DNA from: an uncultured cyanobacterium
Lineage (GTDB): Bacteria > Cyanobacteriota > Cyanobacteriia > CACIAM-69d
DNA: 64,000 nucleotides
Assembly: GCA_937883785.1 (NCBI GenBank)
Contig: CALGDE010000039.1
Location: 1-64,000, forward strand
Direction: 5' to 3'
Below are positions 255 to 44,435 of this stretch, piece after piece. A program made the translations under genes and the position numbers. The notes below the pieces were generated by a model. That model worked only from the letters and a program-made list of their open reading frames with translations. It was not told the origin of the DNA and did no database searches. Numbering within the stretch: the stretch's first letter is position 1; every line of letters starts with the position of its first letter.

Positions 255-3200
255 ATGCCCCGCCGTAACGATATCCAAAAGATTCTCCTGCTTGGCTCCG
301 GTCCCATCATCATCGGACAAGCTTGTGAGTTTGATTATTCCGGTACCCAGGCGTGTAAGGCGTTGCGGGCTGAAGGGTACGAAGTGGTGTTGGTAAACTC
401 CAACCCGGCGACAATTATGACGGACCCGGATACGGCGGATCGCACCTATATTGAGCCCCTAACGCCCGAAACCGTCGAAAAGATTATTGAAAAGGAGCGT
501 CCTGATGCCCTGTTGCCCACCATGGGGGGACAAACGGCGCTAAATATTGCCGTGGCCCTGGCGAAAAATGGGGCGTTGGCAAAGTATGGGGTAGAGCTGA
601 TTGGGGCGAAGTTGCCGGCGATCGAGATGGCGGAGGATCGTAAGCTCTTTAAAGAGGCCATGGAGCGCATTGGCGTGGGCGTGTGCCCTTCAGGATTGGC
701 AAATTCGCTGGAGGAGGCGCGGGAAATTGCCAAGGAAATCGGCACTTATCCGCTGATTATTCGCCCAGCATTTACCATGGGCGGCACCGGCGGCGGCATT
801 GCCTACAACCAAAAGGAATTTGAAGAAATTTCCATGTCGGGTATTGACGCCAGCCCGGTGGACCAAATTTTGATCGAGAAGTCCCTGTTGGGGTGGAAAG
901 AATATGAGTTGGAGGTGATGCGGGATCTCGCCGACAATGTGGTGATTATTTGCTCTATTGAAAACTTCGATCCCATGGGGGTTCACACCGGCGACTCCAT
1001 TACCGTTGCCCCTGCCCAGACCTTGACGGACAAGGAATACCAGCGGCTGAGGGATGCGTCCATCAAAATTATTCGCGAAATCGGCGTAGAAACGGGGGGA
1101 TCTAATATTCAGTTCTCGGTGAATCCCGACACCGGCGACATGATTGTGATTGAGATGAATCCGCGCGTGTCCCGCAGCTCGGCTTTGGCGTCGAAGGCCA
1201 CCGGATTCCCCATTGCTAAGTTTGCGGCGAAGCTGGCGGTGGGCTATACCCTGGACGAAATTTCCAACGATATTACCCAAAAAACACCGGCGTCCTTTGA
1301 GCCCACCATTGATTACGTGGTGACGAAAATTCCTCGGTTTGCCTTTGAAAAGTTTCCCAATAGCTCCAGCACCTTGACGACCCAAATGAAGTCGGTGGGT
1401 GAAGCGATGGCGATCGGGCGTACGTTCCAGGAGTCGTTCCAAAAGGCGCTGCGATCGCTCGAAACCGGCAGAGCGGGCTGGGGCTGCGACAAATCCGAAA
1501 CCTTGCCTAGCCTGAGCCAAATCCGCGCCGGCTTACGTACCCCCAGCCCAGATCGCGTCTTTACCCTGCGCCACGCGTTGAAAATGGGCATGGCGGTGGA
1601 AGAAATTTATGAGCTGACGGCGATCGACCCGTGGTTCCTGCACCAGCTATCGGCGCTGGTGGAAACGGAGAATTTCCTGAAGGTGACGCCGCTGAATAAG
1701 CTGGATGCGACCAAGATGATGGCGGTGAAGCAACAGGGGTTTAGCGATCGCCAAATCGCCTACGCCACCAAAACCGACGAGGACGAGGTACGGGCCTACC
1801 GCAAATCCCTAGACGTGATTCCTGTTTATAAAACCGTGGACACTTGCGCCGCCGAATTTGAAGCCTATACGCCCTACTACTATTCCGCCTACGAAACGGG
1901 AGCCATGCGGGTCACCGGCGACGGGGTGGAAATGGTGCCGCCGGAGTCGGAGCGGCTGCCGTCCGATAAGCCTAAGGTGATGATTTTGGGGGGCGGTCCT
2001 AATCGCATTGGACAGGGCATTGAGTTTGACTATTGCTGCTGTCACGCGTCCTTTGCCATGCAGGACAACGGCTACGAAACCATTATGGTGAACTCCAACC
2101 CGGAAACCGTTTCCACCGATTACGACACCAGCGATCGCCTATACTTCGAGCCGCTCACCAAGGAAGACGTGCTCAATATCATCGAAGCGGAGCAGCCCCG
2201 GGGAGTGGTGGTGCAGTTTGGGGGACAGACGCCGCTGAAGCTGGCAGTACCTTTACAAGAGGCGCTGGCTGCCAATGAGAACCTGCCCACGGAAATTTGG
2301 GGCACCAGTCCCGACTCCATCGATGCGGCGGAAGATCGGGAGCGGTTTGAGAAAATCCTGCGGGAGTTGGATATTAAGCAGCCCCCCAACGGCATTGCCC
2401 GCAGCAACAGTGAAGCGGTGAAAATTGCCCAGAAAATTAGCTATCCGGTGGTGGTGCGCCCCAGCTATGTGTTAGGCGGTCGAGCCATGGAAATTGTGTA
2501 TTCCGACTCGGAGCTGGATCGGTATATGACCTACGCGGTACAGGTGGAGCCGGACCATCCTATTTTGATTGATAAGTATTTGGTCAATGCCGTCGAGGTG
2601 GATGTGGATGCGATCGCCGACAAAGATGGCAACGTCACCATCGGCGGCATCATGGAGCACATTGAACAGGCGGGAATCCACTCCGGCGACTCAGCGTGTT
2701 CCTTGCCTCCCTTCTCCCTAACGGAATCTGCCCTAACCACCATTCGCCAGTGGACGATCGCCCTAGCAAAAGCGCTGAACGTCGTCGGCTTAATGAACAT
2801 TCAGTTTGCCGTAGTCACCGACCCCGACACCCAAACGCCCCAAGTTTATATTTTGGAAGCCAATCCCCGCGCCTCCCGCACCGTACCTTTCGTGTCTAAG
2901 GCGATCGGGGTGCCCCTGGCGAAAATGGCGGTGCGGGTGATGTCCGGTCAGGGTTTGCCGGAGCTGGACTATATGGAGGAAAGAATTCCCGACCATATTG
3001 CCCTGAAAGAAGCGGTGCTGCCCTTCAACAAATTTGCTGGCACTGACACCTTGCTGGGGCCCGAAATGCGATCCACCGGCGAGGTTATGGGCATTGACTC
3101 TAACTTTGGCACTGCCTTCGCCAAGGCAGAGCTGGGAGCCGGTCAGGAGCTACCCCTAGAAGGCACCGTATTTGTGTCCATGAACGATCGCGACAAAGCA

Positions 3201-3554
3201 GCCGTCATTCCCGTAGTCAAAGAATTTCTAGATTTAGGGTTCCGGGTCATTGCTACGGCGGGCACCTGGCGATCGCTCCATCAAGCGGGACTCGACCAGG
3301 TGGAAACAGTACTCAAAGTGCACGAGGGACGTCCCCATATTGTGGACGCGATCGTAAACGATCAAGTACAGCTCATTATCAACACCCCCGTGGGCGAAGT
3401 GGCCCAGTATGACGACCAACAAATTCGTCGTACCGCCCTTGACTACAAAGTGCCCACGGTGACTACCATTGCCGGCGCTAAGGCAACGGTGGCTGCCATT
3501 CGGGCCCTACGTTCAGAAGACTTTACCGTTAAGGCAATCCAAGATTTTATCTAA
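255..3554 (+). CDS. carB: Carbamoyl-phosphate synthase large subunit
   Basis: Complete 1099-residue CarB. With CarA (not in this window) it makes carbamoyl phosphate from bicarbonate, glutamine-derived ammonia and two ATP, feeding arginine and pyrimidine synthesis in the cytoplasm. The internal duplication is visible: the first ATP-grasp half opens with GSGPIIIGQ near residue 14 and the second with GGGPNRIGQ near residue 577. A methylglyoxal-synthase-like regulatory domain starts near residue 970 (VFVSMNDRD). Length matches the family. The ATG at 255 gives the expected [12 protein letters not shown] start, without a strong Shine-Dalgarno. It stands alone, followed by a long non-coding stretch. 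Several long antisense frames lie inside it but look like shadows. Confidence 0.98.
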
Positions 3555-3688: not shown

Positions 3689-3765
3689 TATCCTAACTGG
3701 TCATAACTGCCAAAAGCTTTACGCCGCGGGGAGTCTACGCCCTTCCAACACAACACAACACGAAG
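3689..3765 (-). mobile_element. Partial copy of MITE-like element (copy D)
   Basis: The segment AACTGCCAAAAGCTTTACG...GGGGAGTCTACGCCCTTCCA resembles the central part of the reverse complement of copies A (4293-4422) and B (15838-15965), and the plus strand of copy C (44327-44435). The shared core is GCCAGAAGCTYTAC followed by GGGGAGTMYAC. I cannot see convincing terminal inverted repeats here, so this is a decayed or partial copy. Confidence 0.5.
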
Positions 3766-4091: not shown

Positions 4092-4295
4092 ATGCCCCGC
4101 AAGTTTGAGCTTCCTTCTGTTGATGCCGACGTAGCCAGCACTTTCTCCGAAGTCTGGGACTCAGGAAAGGTTACCAATCGCAACCGCCAGGAAATCAAGT
4201 CTGCACTGCTATGCGGCGGTTTAACCCACGATGACCATATGGCCATTGATCGTATGGTGCATGCCGTAAAGCGCGGCTGGCTTAGCCTCGACTAG
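4092..4295 (+). CDS. Small conserved protein, paralogue A (67 aa)
   Basis: I do not recognise a named family. This 67-residue acidic-basic protein shares 31 of 49 aligned C-terminal residues with the product at 5110-5313 and clearly resembles that at 5764-5982. The shared core runs from VTN..R..I.SALL.G.LT..D to a very conserved AIDRMVHAV.RGWL ending in LD or ID. It has no signal peptide, membrane segment or cysteine motif. The helical repeat-like pattern suggests a small DNA- or protein-binding adaptor (inference only). An AGGA at 4080-4083 lies 8 bp before the ATG. The TAG stop codon at 4293-4295 is also the first three bases of MITE-like copy A. Confidence 0.75.
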   Translation: MPRKFELPSVDADVASTFSEVWDSGKVTNRNRQEIKSALLCGGLTHDDHMAIDRMVHAVKRGWLSLD

Positions 4296-4422
4296 GGGAT
4301 GTGCTTAGTTAAATGCCAAATCCAATGGCGGCGAGGGTCACGGCCCTATGTTTTCAGCTCAAAAGAACGTGTACTCCCCACGACGTAAAGCTTCTGGCGT
4401 TTAACTGAGCACACGCCATAGG
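4293..4422 (+). mobile_element. MITE-like element, copy A
   Basis: About 130 bp bounded by imperfect terminal inverted repeats: TGTGCTTAGTTAAATGCCA (4300-4318) against TGGCGTTTAACTGAGCACA (4395-4413), 17 of 19 complementary, the two exceptions being G-T. It aligns over its full length with copy B at 15838-15965 and in inverted orientation with copy C at 44327-44435. It has no coding capacity. It begins on the stop codon of small gene A, so it could act as that gene's transcription end. Confidence 0.7.
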
Positions 4423-4431
4423 TCAAATACA

Positions 4432-4473
4432 GCATTCCAGTAATTCCTCTCACCTCACCGGAATCTGGAATGC
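4432..4473. other. Long nested hairpin
   Basis: GCATTCCAG (4432-4440) pairs perfectly with CTGGAATGC (4465-4473), and ATTCC (4443-4447) with GGAAT (4460-4464), giving a 14-bp stem with one bulge and a 12-nt loop. There is no T-run. It lies immediately after MITE copy A within the 814-bp spacer 4296-5109. The rest of that spacer holds only a weaker stem (ATGGGGC 4532-4538 with GCCCCAT 4552-4558) and no credible gene. Confidence 0.5.
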
Positions 4474-4982
4474 GGTTCGGGCATTGGGTCGAGAAAATTC
4501 CGTCAAAACATTCACTGAAATTTTCTGAGCTATGGGGCGATCGCTAAATTTGCCCCATGGCTTTTAGCTTCCTAGAACGTGTTGCCAACGATAAAAGCTT
4601 TGCTTAGTTGAATTTCAAACTTTCAGAGCTCAGCAAAATCCCAAGCATCCTCACCTCAAAGCTCTCTCACCAGGGGTAAAGTGCGTTTGGGGCTTGCGGC
4701 TCCATGTTACCTTTGCTTTTCTTCACTTCACAGCAATGGGAATTTCAGCCCCTAGTTTTCGCAGCGGATCACATCACTAGCTGTGGTTGCTTGTGGATCG
4801 TGCCTCAAAGCGTTCCGCCAACAAATTGAACCTTACCACCTTATTCACTTTTCCCACCCACTCCTCAGACAAAGATGACCCCAGCTTTCTACATCTATAC
4901 CGAAAGATATAAGCACTATAGAGTCGTATTTGAGACAATTGCAAAGAGTGATTAGAGAAGTCTTTTAAGCATCTTAGAACCA

Positions 4983-5043
4983 GCTATTAAATCTAGCTGT
5001 TGAATCGTTAACGGTTACCAAGGTTCAACTAGATTTAATTAGC
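4983..5043 (+). promoter_or_regulatory. Large imperfect hairpin before small gene B
   Basis: The arm GCTATTAAATCTAGCTGTTG (4983-5002, plus AA) is the imperfect reverse complement of TTCAACTAGATTTAATTAGC (5024-5043), with a 19-nt centre. It sits about 65-125 bp upstream of the gene at 5110. It could be a 5' leader structure, an operator or a terminator for unknown upstream transcription. Confidence 0.5.
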
Positions 5044-5109
5044 AATTACTCAACAGCTAACGCACTTAGCAGCTGAAGTCGTCTCTAGTATTCCAGGAGT
5101 TTTAAACAT

Positions 5110-5313
5110 ATGGCCATGCTGTTTGATCTGGTCTCTAATAATATTGATCTATCTGACATTTACTCAGAAGTTTGGGCATCTAGAAGAGTAACAAATGATA
5201 GTCGTGAAGTAATTAGATCTGCTTTATTAAGCGGTGACTTAACTAGTGAGGACTGTAAGGCAATTGATCGTATGGTTCATGCGATTAGACGGGGCTGGCT
5301 TGATATTGACTAG
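5110..5313 (+). CDS. Small conserved protein, paralogue B (67 aa)
   Basis: Second member of the small family described at 4092, of the same length. It keeps the core SALLSGDLT..D...AIDRMVHAIRRGWL and ends DID. A good ribosome-binding site, AGGAG at 5095-5099, lies 10 bp before the ATG. Codon use is clearly more AT-rich than in paralogue A (many AAT, AGA, TTA, ATT codons) although the proteins are close. The duplication is therefore either old or the copies came from different sources. The gene is not in an operon: about 800 bp of non-coding DNA precedes it and 450 bp follows. Function unknown. Confidence 0.8.
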   Translation: MAMLFDLVSNNIDLSDIYSEVWASRRVTNDSREVIRSALLSGDLTSEDCKAIDRMVHAIRRGWLDID

Positions 5314-5763
5314 AGTCAATGGACCTCCTGCATGAATCCTCGCCCTTACCCTAAATCCCCTCCCTGGGGAGAGAAACTTCAGACAAGTCCGTTTTTCCTT
5401 ATTCCTGCTCCCCTTCTCTTTAGTGAGAAGCATGTCCTGGGCATAGTTGCAGGGGGGCTGGAGGACGAGGGCTGCCAATACTTCTTAAGGGTCTAATGAC
5501 CCAGCTCAATTAAACTGATTAGGCTTGGATTCTTTACGGTCCCCCAAAGCACATATATTTAGTTTTTGGTTGTGACAGGCATTACACAACGAATTGTATT
5601 GTCACCCTTCTATGTGTGATGTTCGGCTTGGGGTAATGCTTTTTGCTTTTTCAAGCTTCTGCTTATCTCATTGTGCCTTCTCAGCGGTTTTCACACTGAT
5701 TGAAAAGCCGCGGAAGCAAGTTAGAGACTCAAAAAACACTTCGCACCAATTGGAATATGGACC
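5314..5763. other. Intergenic stretch between paralogues B and C
   Basis: No credible gene. There is a C-rich tract around 5340-5370 (CCTAAATCCCCTCCC) of a kind common in dispersed cyanobacterial repeats. A perfect 6-bp hairpin CTTCTC/GAGAAG lies at 5413-5430. A 70-codon frame at 5594-5806 overlaps the start of paralogue C in another frame and has no supporting feature. Confidence 0.5.
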
Positions 5764-5982
5764 ATGTATGAGCCGTTTGAAAAGCACCACCTCAACACTG
5801 ACGTAATCAATACTGGCGTAATCAATGTTTTCTTAGAAGCTCAGGAGCTTGGAAAGCTTTCCTTTCAAAATCGCCAAAAAATTCAGTCAGAGTTACTATA
5901 CGGCAGCTTGACTGAGCAAGATTACATAGCCATTAATCGAATAGTGCATGCTGTCAGACACGGCTGGCTGGAATTAGATTAG
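5764..5982 (+). CDS. Small conserved protein, paralogue C (72 aa)
   Basis: Third and most diverged member of the family at 4092 and 5110. The C-terminal half matches: I.SELLYG.LTE.D..AINRIVHAVRHGWLELD. The N-terminus is longer because of a 15-bp direct duplication (5794-5808 and 5809-5823) encoding NTDVI then NTGVI. That places gene C among the five loci with 15-bp tandem repeats. GGA at 5752-5754 gives only a weak ribosome-binding site. The stop codon TAG at 5980-5982 lies inside TTAGGGCGTGTCATC (5979-5993), which resembles the end of MITE copy C. Function unknown. Confidence 0.7.
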   Translation: MYEPFEKHHLNTDVINTGVINVFLEAQELGKLSFQNRQKIQSELLYGSLTEQDYIAINRIVHAVRHGWLELD

Positions 5983-6234: not shown

Positions 6235-8355
6235 TCAAGTTGACTGGACAATCTTGCGGTATTTTGCACGGATAGCTTCCCGAGATAAAGATACGGTGCT
6301 ATCGCTGACAGGCGCAGAATCTGAAGTGATCGCCGGAATAATTTCATCGGCGATCGGCACCAGCAAATGAAACTCGCTACCACACTCTCGACCTTCAGAT
6401 TCCGCCCAAACTCGACCGCCCAGCCCCTTCATAATCTGTCGGCAAATGGCAAGCCCTAAACCGGTACCACCTACGGTGCGTCGCAACGATCCTTCCGCCT
6501 GGTAAAACCGGTCAAACACCGCCTCTAGCTGATTTTCTTCAATACCGCGTCCCGTATCGGCGATCGTGATTTGCAGGTTATTGTCATCAACCTCGTAAGC
6601 CGTAACCACAATTTTGCCGTCATTGGGCGTAAATTTACAGGCATTATCTAATAGTTTAGATAGCACTTCCACCAGCCACTCTCCGTCAGATTCAATGGGG
6701 CTTAGGTGGGCTGGAATCTTGAGAATAATCGCCGGACGCACCGAAGCATCCAACCGAGTATAAATACCACTCAGGGCTAAATCCACACACTCTTGCACGG
6801 AAAGGGGTTCTAAATTCCACGGCACTCGCCCACTTTCCAGGCGCGATAGGGTCAAAAAGTCTTGCACCAGATACCGCATTCGATCCGCGTCATCTAGCGC
6901 CGTTTCTAACATTATCTGGCGCAATTCCTGGGCCATATCCGGCTCGCTTGCCAAGCTTTCTAAACACACCCGAATCGTGGACAAAGGCGTTCGCAACTCA
7001 TGTCCTGTAATCGCAATTAAGTTGCTTCGGGTTTGATTCAGCACCTCTAGCTGTTCACTGAAATTCTCTAGGTCTGCGTAGGCTTGGGCCTGCAACAACG
7101 CTCCCCCCAACTGAACCGCCACTGCCTCCACTAGGCTGACCTCATCCTGGGACCAGGTATGGGTAAAGCTGCCGCAGTGATGCAGTTCAATAACTCCCAA
7201 AAATTTATCTCGATAGCGCACCGGCACCAGCAGCCAAGAGGTGATATTCCACTGTTGCGCCACCTGTTGCGCCAGATTATCAGCGGGCTCCAAAAGCCGC
7301 TCATCACAGGCAGTATCCGCGATCGCCACAGCGGTCACATCGTCCTGGGCGATCGCCTGAAACAGAGGATTATCCTTCAACATCCATGAATTTCCCGCCA
7401 GAGCCGGCACATTTGCCGCCAGCGCTTCATGGACAATCTCCGTGGTCTCATCGCCTACTTGACAACGGTACACAAGGCAACGGCAAACTCGGAGTGCTTT
7501 GCTCAGTTCCTTGGTGGCGATCACCAACACCTCATCGGGATTTAAGGATTGGCGAATGGTGGACGAAATGGAATTAATCAGCCGTTCCCGCCGTTCCTTA
7601 TTGGCAATATTTTGATACGCCTTTGTCAGCTTGTTCTGCCCCGTTTGCAAATAGGTCATTAGCCGCTGGGCAAAAGGCTCCGGGTCACGGTGGCTAAAGG
7701 GCTTAGCAACGGATTCGGGAATGGCAGTAATTAGGGGGGTGAGGCGCTCCTTCAGATCGGGGCGATAGTGAATAATGCGCTCCAGCAAAATTAGCGCCGA
7801 TTGACAGGTGATCTTGCGATCAAAGGTCCAAATCCCCTCAAAGCGGCGGGTGCGACTTTCAATGGGCGACTCAGTCAAAGCCGACTTCTTACCCGTGGCG
7901 GCAGTTTCACTCGTTTCCCGCCGCTCAGCACAGATTAAACAGGCAGCATAGTTGTCGCCCAAAATCACCAGGTGCCACTCGTTGGCTAGCGCATCATCCG
8001 GCGTAAAAGGGATCGCTTCGTGGTTGCTGGGGCTGGCGATTAAATCTGTTTCTGGCGATGCCAGCACAAAAACGTGGGGCGATTTCCGTCCAATGCGCTC
8101 GTAGCGTTTTGCTTCCTGACGATAAAATCGCTCTTTCTGAAAGCAGGCAACAACAATGGGTTGCTCATCCTCCGCCCCGGAAAGCACCAAATCTTCCATG
8201 GCGTGGGACAGGGCGGTGAGGGAATTTTTGAAATAAATCTGCGATCGCAATCCAGGAAACTCAGCCAACACATCCCCTAAAACGGAATTGGGAAGGGCGG
8301 CTGATGACATACCTTTCCGGGGCGACACATCGATTTGAGCTAGTTCAGAACCCAC
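6235..8355 (-). CDS. DICT-GAF sensor histidine kinase
   Basis: A 706-residue soluble hybrid sensor. Residues about 15-165 form a DICT domain (a sensory domain of two-component and diguanylate cyclase proteins, with the pattern IYFKNSLTALSHAMED...EWHLVILGDNYAACLICAE). A GAF domain lies at about 265-425. HisKA follows, with the phospho-accepting His near residue 452 (GHELRTPLSTIR), then HATPase with N, G1 and G2 boxes (LLDNACKFTP, DTGRGIEE, GGTGLGLAI). It should autophosphorylate and pass phosphate to an unlinked response regulator; none is adjacent. The start is uncertain: GTG at 8355 has GGGAG 12 bp upstream, while ATG at 8310 would begin right at the DICT domain. A second DICT protein lies at 52630. 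Confidence 0.93.
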   Translation of the reverse strand: MGSELAQIDVSPRKGMSSAALPNSVLGDVLAEFPGLRSQIYFKNSLTALSHAMEDLVLSGAEDEQPIVVACFQKERFYRQEAKRYERIGRKSPHVFVLASPETDLIASPSNHEAIPFTPDDALANEWHLVILGDNYAACLICAERRETSETAATGKKSALTESPIESRTRRFEGIWTFDRKITCQSALILLERIIHYRPDLKERLTPLITAIPESVAKPFSHRDPEPFAQRLMTYLQTGQNKLTKAYQNIANKERRERLINSISSTIRQSLNPDEVLVIATKELSKALRVCRCLVYRCQVGDETTEIVHEALAANVPALAGNSWMLKDNPLFQAIAQDDVTAVAIADTACDERLLEPADNLAQQVAQQWNITSWLLVPVRYRDKFLGVIELHHCGSFTHTWSQDEVSLVEAVAVQLGGALLQAQAYADLENFSEQLEVLNQTRSNLIAITGHELRTPLSTIRVCLESLASEPDMAQELRQIMLETALDDADRMRYLVQDFLTLSRLESGRVPWNLEPLSVQECVDLALSGIYTRLDASVRPAIILKIPAHLSPIESDGEWLVEVLSKLLDNACKFTPNDGKIVVTAYEVDDNNLQITIADTGRGIEENQLEAVFDRFYQAEGSLRRTVGGTGLGLAICRQIMKGLGGRVWAESEGRECGSEFHLLVPIADEIIPAITSDSAPVSDSTVSLSREAIRAKYRKIVQST

Positions 8356-15837: not shown

Positions 15838-15965
15838 TAGGGGCTGTTCTCAGTCAAACTCCAAACCCAATCATAACGAGGATTACAGCCAGCCTGTTTG
15901 ATTTGAGAGGGGGTGTACTCCCCACTGTGTAGAGCTTCTGGCGCCTAGCTGAGCACATGCCCTAG
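15838..15965 (+). mobile_element. MITE-like element, copy B
   Basis: 128 bp aligned end to end with copy A. The left end is TAGGGGCTGTTCTCAGTCAA. The right end reads CTAGGGCATGTGCTCAGCTA on the minus strand. The most conserved block is GTGTACTCCCCAC and AGCTTCTGGCG. It lies upstream of deoC in the 719-bp non-coding region 15683-16401 and has no coding capacity. Confidence 0.7.
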
Positions 15966-20947: not shown

Positions 20948-21330
20948 CGTGACTTGCCACCGTGCTAGTGAAGAACTAAAAGAAGAACCTAAAACCGTGC
21001 AAAAAATTGCAGAAGCTTACCGTTTGCCTAACCGTTGAGTGCGTTGGCAATTGCCACGGTCAACAAAACTGCCGTGATTAGCACACAGGACATTAGCCTT
21101 ATCAAAAATCCGGCTTTTAACGCCAACAAAGCCCCGACGATGCTATCTCCATCGTAATCGCTGGGGGGAAGCCTGTGATACCCCCAGGCAGACTTTTTCA
21201 GGGGGCTAGCCCACCAAAGTCGATCCATGGTTTGCCCACCGCCTCGCAGCCGCAGCCAGAGATTTCCACTGTACCTAGACGGAAAGCGCCTGTCACCCGT
21301 ATGGCGTTGAAAAATATTAAGTTAAAAGTA
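20948..21330. other. Intergenic stretch between tmRNA and caspase-like gene
   Basis: 383 bp with no feature I trust. A 66-codon minus-strand frame at 21028-21228 has a hydrophobic C-terminus (about 25 residues) but an implausible N-terminus and no ribosome-binding site. The promoter of the caspase-like gene and the 3' flank of ssrA must lie here. Confidence 0.4.
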
Positions 21331-21717
21331 TGGAGCTGGAGGGAATCGAACCCATCGTCCGCCCTGGGTATTGATACGCCACTCATTCACAGGTTTAGCC
21401 TTTTTAGTCCGCAAGGCGGGAACTGTTCCTTATCCCGAACAGTAGGATTCTTGAGTTAAAGGCTTAGCTAATTATCGAACCCAAGAACTATAATCAGCGC
21501 ATCCGTTGGGTTTTACCCGGTGACTTTAACGGAGTCCGTCAACGAGTGCTCGGACCTATAAGAGGTGTTTTTAAGCTACGGCAGCAGCCTTACGAGCGAA
21601 AGGAACGATGTTGTTCGCATTTACTTTGTTTTGAGCCATTGATTTCCGAGAGTTAGCTCGCTCTCGACCTGTATCACAACGTAGTTTTCGCCAACACGTC
21701 GAAACCATTACAGCCCC
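21331..21717 (-). ncRNA. ssrA: Transfer-messenger RNA (one-piece)
   Basis: On the minus strand the RNA begins GGGGCTGTAATGGTTTCGAC at 21717 and ends GGGTTCGATTCCCTCCAGCT then CCA at 21331. The two ends pair to form the tRNA-Ala-like acceptor (GGGGCTG with CAGCTCC). The genome does not encode an extra CCA. The tag reading frame runs from GCG at 21618 to the TAA at 21573-21571 and encodes ANNIVPFARKAAAVA, the form seen in cyanobacteria. It rescues stalled ribosomes with SmpB and marks products for ClpXP. A -10-like TACAAA sits at 21729-21724, correctly placed for a start at 21717. It is the standard one-piece form, not the permuted form known from marine picocyanobacteria. Confidence 0.95.
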
Positions 21718-44326: not shown

Positions 44327-44435
44327 TTAGAGCGTGTCATCAATCGAGTGCCAGGACCCTCACACAGTGGGGAGTCCACACCCTTCCACAACAAAGAACA
44401 TTAGGGGGTGAAACCTTCGTGACGACAGCCCCTAA
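44327..44435 (-). mobile_element. MITE-like element, copy C
   Basis: 109 bp between the convergent TRAP and nblS genes. Ends: TTAGAGCGTGTCATCA on the left and, read on the minus strand, TTAGGGGCTGTCGTCA on the right (13 of 16 identical). The interior CACAGTGGGGAGTCCACACC matches the reverse complement of copy B. The ACAGCCCCTA end matches that of copy B exactly. Short, no coding capacity. Confidence 0.7.

What the first reader, a model, noticed from the sequence alone, without database searches (positions are those of the whole stretch)
4092..5982. Three paralogous tiny genes in a 2-kb gene-poor cluster
Products A, B and C share a core ending AI(D/N)R(M/I)VHAV.(R/H)GWL.LD. They are separated by unusually long spacers (814 and 450 bp) full of hairpins and repeats. 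Composition differs strongly between A and B despite 31 of 49 identical residues. Conservation of the protein but not of base composition implies selection on the product. Function is unknown; the family could be a class of small regulators.
Basis: seen in the sequence. Interest (0 to 1): 0.6.

Follow-up and report, generated by a model that had tools for sequence, protein, structure and literature searches.

The report
Tiny stand-alone relatives of CdgR domain
Three tiny neighbouring genes belong to a large, unnamed family of 65-residue cyanobacterial proteins that look like a cut-out piece of a known second-messenger receptor (CdgR), and many family members elsewhere share a distinctive promoter, which points to a hidden signalling network.

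Summary
In detail: A (4092-4295), B (5110-5313) and C (5764-5982) are paralogous genes between carB and a sensor-kinase gene. They belong to a cyanobacterial family of free-standing, about 65-aa proteins without a Pfam or NCBIfam model, found in 58 of 386 sampled genomes, with up to 15 scored copies each. Purifying selection is clear for A (dN 0.088, dS 0.99).

Two results go beyond the finding. (1) The family is homologous to the N-terminal domain of CdgR/ComFB, the cyanobacterial c-di-GMP/c-di-AMP receptor: profile-profile probability 95.6%, E 1e-8; the predicted fold matches PDB 8hja residues 1-57 (rmsd 1.6, 56 residues). (2) Many family genes share a promoter module: a GTGAN6TCAC site, then ATCAC half-sites every 22-23 nt, then ATA[CT]T 23-24 nt after the last. 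In 20 genomes, 26 of 51 triple arrays lie directly upstream of a family gene. The geometry matches published cyanobacterial CRP promoters.

A, B and C themselves lack the array; paralogs D and E in the same genome have it. Best reading: single-domain regulators that modulate CdgR-type signalling, many of them in a CRP-type regulon. Homology is well supported; function and regulator are inferred. B and C have long branches and may be diverging or decaying.

The parts
4092..4295 (+). gene A: free-standing CdgR-N-terminal-domain-like protein, 67 aa; the conserved member, ortholog in L068 at the same place
   Evidence: dN/dS 0.088/0.99 against L068
5110..5313 (+). gene B: same family, 67 aa, GC 0.39, long branch, no ortholog between A and C in L068; a second in-frame ATG at 5116 is a possible start
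5764..5982 (+). gene C: same family, 72 aa, longest branch; groups with the second copy of L068 (SH-aLRT 92)
4300..4425 (.). dispersed repeat element in the A-B spacer, at least 40 copies in this genome; explains part of the hairpins
3704..3744 (.). inverted partner of 4363-4403 (78% complementary), in the carB-A spacer
255..3554 (+). upstream flank, 1099-aa ORF recognised by eye as carB (large subunit of carbamoyl-phosphate synthase); syntenic in L068
   Evidence: name not from a family search
6235..8355 (-). downstream flank, 706-aa ORF recognised by eye as a GAF-type sensor histidine kinase; syntenic in L068
   Evidence: name not from a family search

Best explanation
A, B and C are members of a multi-copy family of single-domain proteins that descend from (or share ancestry with) the N-terminal domain of the cyanobacterial cyclic-dinucleotide receptor CdgR/ComFB, without the ligand-binding ComFB domain. 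SHOWN: real coding genes under purifying selection (A, D), family in cyanobacteria, homology to the CdgR N-terminal domain, no ComFB domain. SHOWN for many family members elsewhere and for paralogs D and E of this genome, but NOT for A, B and C: a shared promoter module, GTGAN6TCAC followed by ATCAC half-sites every 22-23 nt and, in about a third, a -10-like ATA[CT]T 23-24 nt after the last half-site. INFERRED: a CRP-family activator (cAMP-CRP of the SYCRP1 type is the first candidate) turns these genes on; the small proteins then act as protein-protein modules that mimic the CdgR N-terminal domain, competing for its partner (CdgR itself, DevH or another target) and so tuning its output. In this lineage the A-B-C cluster arose by local duplication, and its members left the array-type control.
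For: Homology: hhalign of the family (A1, 25 rows) with the CdgR N-terminal alignment (A3, 17 rows) prob 86.6, E 4.5e-6; with 108 rows (A4) prob 95.6, E 1.2e-8; 200 column-shuffled controls reached at most score 15.2 against 31.3, reversed 9.0. Two AlphaFold2 models (pLDDT 79 and 80) both match PDB 8hja (CdgR) residues 1-57: Z 7.8 and 7.9, rmsd 1.6, 56 aligned, next row Z 4.0 and 3.8; Foldseek prob 0.90 and 0.93. Sequence-only profile search of the PDB lists the same chain and region, E 1.4 then 0.046. In its own genome the family profile ranks the CdgR N-terminus 7th, E 0.048. A bridging free-standing protein (L240) is matched by both the CdgR-N profile and the family profile and carries the array. 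Family: 58 of 386 genomes; all 80 loci kept of 101 confirmed in the named collection are titled as cyanobacteria. Promoter: ATCAC mean 1.92 per upstream in 61 non-redundant family upstreams vs 0.24 in 325 controls, two or more in 62% vs 3%; 87 of 111 pair distances lie within 1.5 nt of a multiple of 22.4; distal unit has perfect GTGA in 18 of 36 chains vs 1 of 61 other units; ATCAC-N22-24-ATA[CT]T in 21 of 61 vs 1 of 325; genome scan 63 matches vs 1 for the reversed pattern, 26 of 51 merged arrays upstream of a family gene. PMC2633013 (passages seen) gives TGTGAN6TCACA and a TAN3T box about 22 bp downstream as the cyanobacterial CRP promoter.
Against: A, B and C have no array (chain P 0.62, 0.07, 0.23), so the promoter argument does not apply to the genes of the finding. 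B and C evolve fast. Foldseek E-values are above 0.4 and a Z below 8 can be a common arrangement by the tool's own note. The residues most conserved in the family (R61, W63) have no counterpart in CdgR, whose N-terminus is acidic (median pI 4.4 vs 6.8), so the contacts may differ. CdgR genes (0 of 17) and the related single-copy A5 genes (0 of 8) have no pair of ATCAC upstream, so nothing ties CdgR itself to the array. No partner, ligand, transcript or protein was observed. The role of the N-terminal domain inside CdgR was not found in any paper I could read.
Confidence: 0.45

Rival explanations
1. The proteins share ancestry with the CdgR N-terminal domain but now do an unrelated job, for example as small nucleic-acid-binding or enzyme-inhibiting proteins using the basic, Trp-containing end of helix 3 ((R/K)RGW).
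For: R54, R61 and G62 are the most conserved positions (107, 103 and 108 of 108) and W63 is present in 93 of 107; the equivalent positions of CdgR are not basic. The family is not acidic like the CdgR domain. Array targets include unrelated small proteins (DUF2949, DUF4278), so co-regulation does not need CdgR.
Against: No fold match to a nucleic-acid-binding protein stood out. Net charge of the family is about zero (median 0).
Confidence: 0.3
2. Only A (and D, E) is functional; B and C are diverging or decaying duplicates in a gene-poor, repeat-invaded stretch.
For: Long branches for B and C; closest relative has two, not three, copies at this place; no array upstream; repeat element in the spacer.
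Against: Both frames are intact and keep the signature AI(D/N)R(M/I)VHA; B scores E 7.5e-25 and C 6.4e-23 with the family profile.
Confidence: 0.2
3. The regulator of the array is not a cAMP-CRP but another CRP-family factor, for example DevH, which is the published partner of CdgR; CdgR would then sit above the genes of its own look-alikes.
For: GTGAN6TCAC is a CRP-family type site; PMC13075795 (passages) states that DevH is of the CRP family and that CdgR acts through it.
Against: [quoted passage not shown] the NtcA site GTAN8TAC (recalled consensus) occurs in 5 of 61 family upstreams vs 7 of 325 controls, far fewer than the CRP-like site, 23 of 61 vs 5 of 325.
Confidence: 0.15
4. Spurious open reading frames, not genes.
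For: Very short, no family model, no transcript data here.
Against: Conserved in many genomes with codon-position bias and dN/dS near 0.1.
Confidence: 0.02

Closest known systems
CdgR / ComFB (Slr1970 of Synechocystis, Alr3277 of Nostoc; PDB 8hja; Pfam PF10719 plus an N-terminal domain)
   Same: The 55-60-residue helix-strand-helix-helix-strand unit with the shared pattern I..(V/F)..A/V...G.LT...........L(S/T).E(E/D)..A(I/L)(D/N)RL..A....G.(V/L); profile-profile prob 95.6; fold Z 7.9
   Different: No ComFB (ligand) domain; free-standing; multi-copy; basic RRGW end of helix 3; different promoter
A5 family (own genome C27:49286, single copy, 23 of 146 genomes)
   Same: Free-standing, about 66 aa, profile-profile prob 97.7 with A4
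   Different: Single copy, GR instead of RGW, 0 of 8 with an ATCAC pair upstream; also unnamed in Pfam (one member scanned)
Cyanobacterial CRP (SYCRP1, AnCrpA) promoters, as described in PMC2633013
   Same: TGTGAN6TCACA-type site and TAN3T box about 22 bp downstream of the last unit
   Different: Here one palindrome is followed by directional half-sites every 22-23 nt; I saw no such array in the passages read
N-terminal-domain homologs of the orange carotenoid protein (HCPs; title and start of abstract of PMC12059629 seen)
   Same: Analogy only: free-standing versions of one domain of a cyanobacterial regulatory protein
   Different: Unrelated protein and function

Membership tests
CdgR / ComFB receptor | ComFB domain PF10719 | tested here: not met
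   No Pfam hit for A, B, C (B only two sub-threshold chance names) nor for any of 108 members at E 0.01; the host's CdgR gives 1.5e-21 in the same library
CdgR / ComFB receptor | N-terminal domain (residues 1-57 of 8hja) | tested here: met
CdgR / ComFB receptor | binds c-di-GMP / c-di-AMP | not testable with these tools
   published for the full protein (PMC12313861, section 1 part 1 read); not for this domain
CdgR / ComFB receptor | dimer; acts through DevH | not testable with these tools
   published for CdgR (PMC13075795, passages)
CRP-type regulon (family as a whole) | GTGAN6TCAC site upstream | tested here: met
   23 of 61 family upstreams vs 5 of 325 controls; full TGTGAN6TCACA 6 of 61 vs 0 of 325
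CRP-type regulon (family as a whole) | TAN3T-type -10 box about 22 bp downstream of the site | tested here: met
   ATA[CT]T 22-24 nt after ATCAC in 21 of 61 vs 1 of 325; spacing 23 (19 upstreams) or 24 (3)
CRP-type regulon (genes A, B, C) | array upstream | tested here: not met
   P 0.62, 0.07, 0.23; D, E and L069 0 of 300
CRP-type regulon | bound by CRP in a cAMP-dependent way | not testable with these tools
   -
Any named Pfam or NCBIfam family | match to the curated model | tested here: not met
   Pfam 0 of 108; NCBIfam only 2 of 108 with a weak CRISPR name, best E 0.0052

The most novel reading that the evidence does not exclude
Filamentous cyanobacteria run a regulon in which a CRP-family activator, nucleated at one palindrome and extended over phased half-sites, switches on a set of CdgR-domain microproteins (with DUF2949 and DUF4278 small proteins and sensor kinases), so that one second messenger (cAMP) resets the receptor of others (c-di-GMP, c-di-AMP) through domain mimicry.
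Probability: 0.2. Interest if true: 0.85.

Novelty: new variant of a known kind. Interest (0 to 1): 0.62.

Why it matters
CdgR decides cell size and viability in Anabaena (PMC13075795, passages), yet its downstream steps are only partly known. A large family of stand-alone copies of its N-terminal domain, up to 15 scored in one genome and often under one promoter design, gives a ready handle on that pathway: the proteins can be used as baits and as dominant modulators. The phased half-site array is itself unusual and gives a simple, testable DNA signature for a regulon that also collects other unnamed small proteins.

Tried and rejected
Family libraries: Pfam and NCBIfam gave nothing for A, B, C or the 108 members. 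PDB by sequence with A alone: one chance row, E 1.4. Plasmids: no match. Phages: six records of Microbacterium phages at E 0.07 inside a gene annotated as UDP-glucose dehydrogenase, judged chance. Rfam: only the tmRNA of the window. Sigma-70 and terminator scans of the region: chance level. The A3-A5 profile comparison alone is not convincing (prob 11.3). HIP1 (GCGATCGC) was enriched upstream in the k-mer count, but it is only modestly above control (19 of 61 from the 0.31 share vs 0.21) and is set aside. The conservation of the spacer between tandem Microcoleus genes (14 loci) cannot separate constraint from short divergence time. The GAGTTC element near the start (11 of 61 vs 20 of 325) was not followed. 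Neighbour genes of 80 loci were clustered and showed mainly orthologous synteny, no recurrent partner that I could name.

Limits of counts. In the phylum-wide profile search at most 15 candidates per genome were scored, so copy numbers are lower bounds. The named-collection scan used one motif and kept 80 of 101 confirmed relatives. The array was found on the same 61 upstreams on which it was then measured; 122 upstreams were reduced to 61 by dropping similar ones. Independent checks are the genome scans. In one search the 20 genomes were chosen because they have the family, so that scan cannot show association; (146 genomes drawn by the tool) can: 13 genomes have the triple array, 12 of these 13 are among the 26 of the 146 that have the family (my cross-count of the two outputs), but the reversed control pattern also occurs 4 times in 4 genomes against 34 matches, so single matches (G019, G027, G072, G089) may be chance. 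The 63 matches were merged by hand into 51 arrays; script 119 prints 53 and 28 because two loci each hold the same two arrays, hence 51 and 26.

Papers. Seen as passages: PMC13075795, PMC10519070, PMC13001216, PMC2633013. PMC12313861: section 1, part 1 of 3, and passages. The primary CdgR paper (PNAS 2023, e2221874120) and the DevH paper (Cell Rep 2025) are not held; what I know of their content is from citing papers or recall. I found no paper on this family or on the array in the searches; these cover open-licence PubMed Central text only, by words and not by sequence.

Full report
Observation. They lie between an ORF that I recognise as carB (255-3554, +) and a sensor-kinase ORF (6235-8355, -). 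In the same genome (4.84 Mb, 167 contigs) there are two more members, D on contig C113 and E on C46. The closest named relative, MAG SRR3401492_bin.38 (L068), keeps carB, A, one further copy and the kinase in the same order; its second copy groups with C (SH-aLRT 92), and A, B, C, D and the three L068/L069 copies form one clade (SH-aLRT 96, 66 columns, many open forks). So the cluster grew by duplication in this lineage; B is not present in L068 at that place.

Real genes. A against its L068 ortholog has dN 0.088 and dS 0.99, D against L069 0.119 and 0.894; differences fall mainly on third positions (11, 4, 22 and 12, 5, 24). B and C have no close ortholog set here, and their branches are about 20 times longer than that of A, so their state is open.

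The family. With one sequence 27 of 386 genomes of the phylum match, with the profile 58 of 386, up to 15 scored copies (at most 15 candidates per genome were scored). The named collection gave 101 confirmed relatives, 80 kept, all titled as cyanobacteria, mostly filamentous Oscillatoriales-type (Microcoleus, Oscillatoria, Laspinema, Tychonema, Okeania, Trichodesmium). Of 122 distinct members collected, 121 are 56-76 aa and one is 98 aa, so they are free-standing. Members stand apart: upstream gap median 588 nt (106 members) against 184 nt between other predicted genes (431 gaps; ORFs of 110 aa or more only). 22 of the 80 loci hold a second member within about 2 kb (my count), so gene-poor tandem clusters are a family habit and not a peculiarity of this window. 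The spacer repeat 4300-4425 is a genome-wide element (at least 40 copies) and not part of the family.

What the protein is. Neither Pfam nor NCBIfam has a model for it. AlphaFold2 on 25 and on 108 aligned sequences gives the same helix-strand-helix-helix-strand fold (pLDDT 79 and 80). [quoted passage not shown] Z of this size alone can be chance by the tool's own note, so I tested sequence. CdgR-type ORFs were collected through PF10719 and their N-terminal parts aligned (A3, 17 rows; they match 8hja 1-62 at 2.5e-33). Profile-profile comparison gives prob 86.6 and E 4.5e-6 with 25 family rows and 95.6 and 1.2e-8 with 108. 200 column shuffles reached score 15.2 at most against 31.3, the reversed alignment 9.0. 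The family profile picks the CdgR N-terminus out of its own genome (rank 7, E 0.048) and 8hja out of the PDB (E 0.046, below one chance row at 0.014). A free-standing 67-aa protein of genome G129 (L240) is matched by both profiles (5.3e-6 and 7.7e-5 in a small set). I take homology to the CdgR N-terminal domain as established. A second, single-copy family (A5) is related to A4 (prob 97.7).

What CdgR does. CdgR (ComFB, Slr1970, Alr3277) binds c-di-GMP and c-di-AMP as a dimer, controls cell size and viability in Anabaena in part through the CRP-family factor DevH, and competence in Synechocystis (PMC13075795 passages; PMC12313861). I found nothing on the role of its N-terminal domain. The small proteins lack the ComFB domain, so by known biology they should not form the published ligand site; whether the N-terminal domain takes part in binding could not be checked.

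The promoter module. A k-mer count on 61 non-redundant upstreams (of 122) showed AATCACA-type words. Against 325 non-redundant upstreams of neighbouring genes, ATCAC occurs 1.92 vs 0.24 times per 300 nt, at least twice in 62% vs 3%, while the opposite strand (GTGAT) is 0.61 vs 0.29. 87 of 111 pair distances lie within 1.5 nt of a multiple of 22.4. In 36 chains the unit farthest from the gene is GTGAN6TCAC (18 perfect, 29 with at most one mismatch), the other 61 units almost never (1 perfect). After the last ATCAC an ATA[CT]T box follows at 23 nt (19 upstreams) or 24 nt (3), in 21 of 61 upstreams vs 1 of 325 controls within 22-24 nt. Genome scan for three units in 20 chosen genomes: 63 matches in 16 genomes, 1 for the reversed control pattern; merged to 51 arrays, 26 lie within 420 nt upstream, same strand, of a family member, 15 of these 26 at 54-57 nt from the start codon. 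The other 25: DUF2949 (two), DUF4278 (one), GAF or PAS histidine kinases (four), TPR proteins (three), a glycosyltransferase, an M16 peptidase, others without a name or without a clear ORF. In 146 genomes drawn by the tool, 34 matches in 13 genomes against 4 control matches; 12 of the 13 have the family. Published cyanobacterial CRP promoters have TGTGAN6TCACA with a TAN3T box about 22 bp downstream (PMC2633013), which is this geometry. CdgR genes (0 of 17) and A5 genes (0 of 8) have no ATCAC pair.

The window genes lack it. By a position-weighted chain score D, E and L069 carry 3 to 5 units (0 of 300 simulated sequences as good), but A, B, C and both L068 copies do not (P 0.62, 0.07, 0.23, 0.51, 0.77). 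The cluster of the finding is therefore an offshoot that lost or never had the family's typical control.

Reading. The most economical account is a family of domain-mimic microproteins around CdgR-type signalling, many of them under a CRP-type activator. Steps shown: genes, family, homology, module. Steps inferred: that CRP (and which) binds it, that the proteins bind CdgR or its partners, and the sense of the effect. Rivals are an unrelated job of the same fold, and decay of B and C.

Noticed in passing
upstream of family genes in L-loci, e.g. L070:5852-5946 (+), L002 -215 to -149 and L005 -105 to -61 from the start: Array of one GTGAN6TCAC site plus ATCAC half-sites at 22-23 nt and a -10-like ATA[CT]T box 23-24 nt after the last; not in the window cluster.
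   Followed up: yes
L251:405-599, L257:426-713, L256:410-703: Other small unknown proteins, DUF2949 (two) and DUF4278 (one), stand behind the same array, as do GAF and PAS histidine kinases (L253, L261, L243, L223) and TPR proteins (L252, L229, L255).
   Followed up: partly
L226:1632-1829 and L227:1625-1822: A further unnamed 66-aa protein family (two members from different genomes, no Pfam match) behind the same array.
   Followed up: no
L240:1243-1443 (-): Free-standing protein closest to the CdgR N-terminal domain itself, with the array upstream; a bridge between CdgR and the family.
   Followed up: partly
G000:C27:49286-49483 (L210): Single-copy related family (A5), 23 of 146 genomes, without array and without Pfam name.
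   Followed up: partly
window 4300-4425; also 15913-15965 and 44328-44415: Dispersed repeat of about 120 nt, at least 40 copies in the genome; also in the closest relative (L068, L069).
   Followed up: partly
G000:C87:15816-15974 (L151), G135:C9:340413, G033:C10:90669: ComFB-domain match inside very long frames (987, 893, 877 aa): a possible large ComFB fusion protein.
   Followed up: no
G000:C113, L002:722-1141 (+), and L069:4616-5035 (+): A 139-aa protein with a likely signal peptide stands next to paralog D in both genomes.
   Followed up: no
G000:C85:1539-1588 (L237): The second triple array of the window's genome lies about 250 nt upstream of an M16 peptidase gene.
   Followed up: no
window 21328-21717 (-): tmRNA gene (Rfam RF00023).
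   Followed up: no
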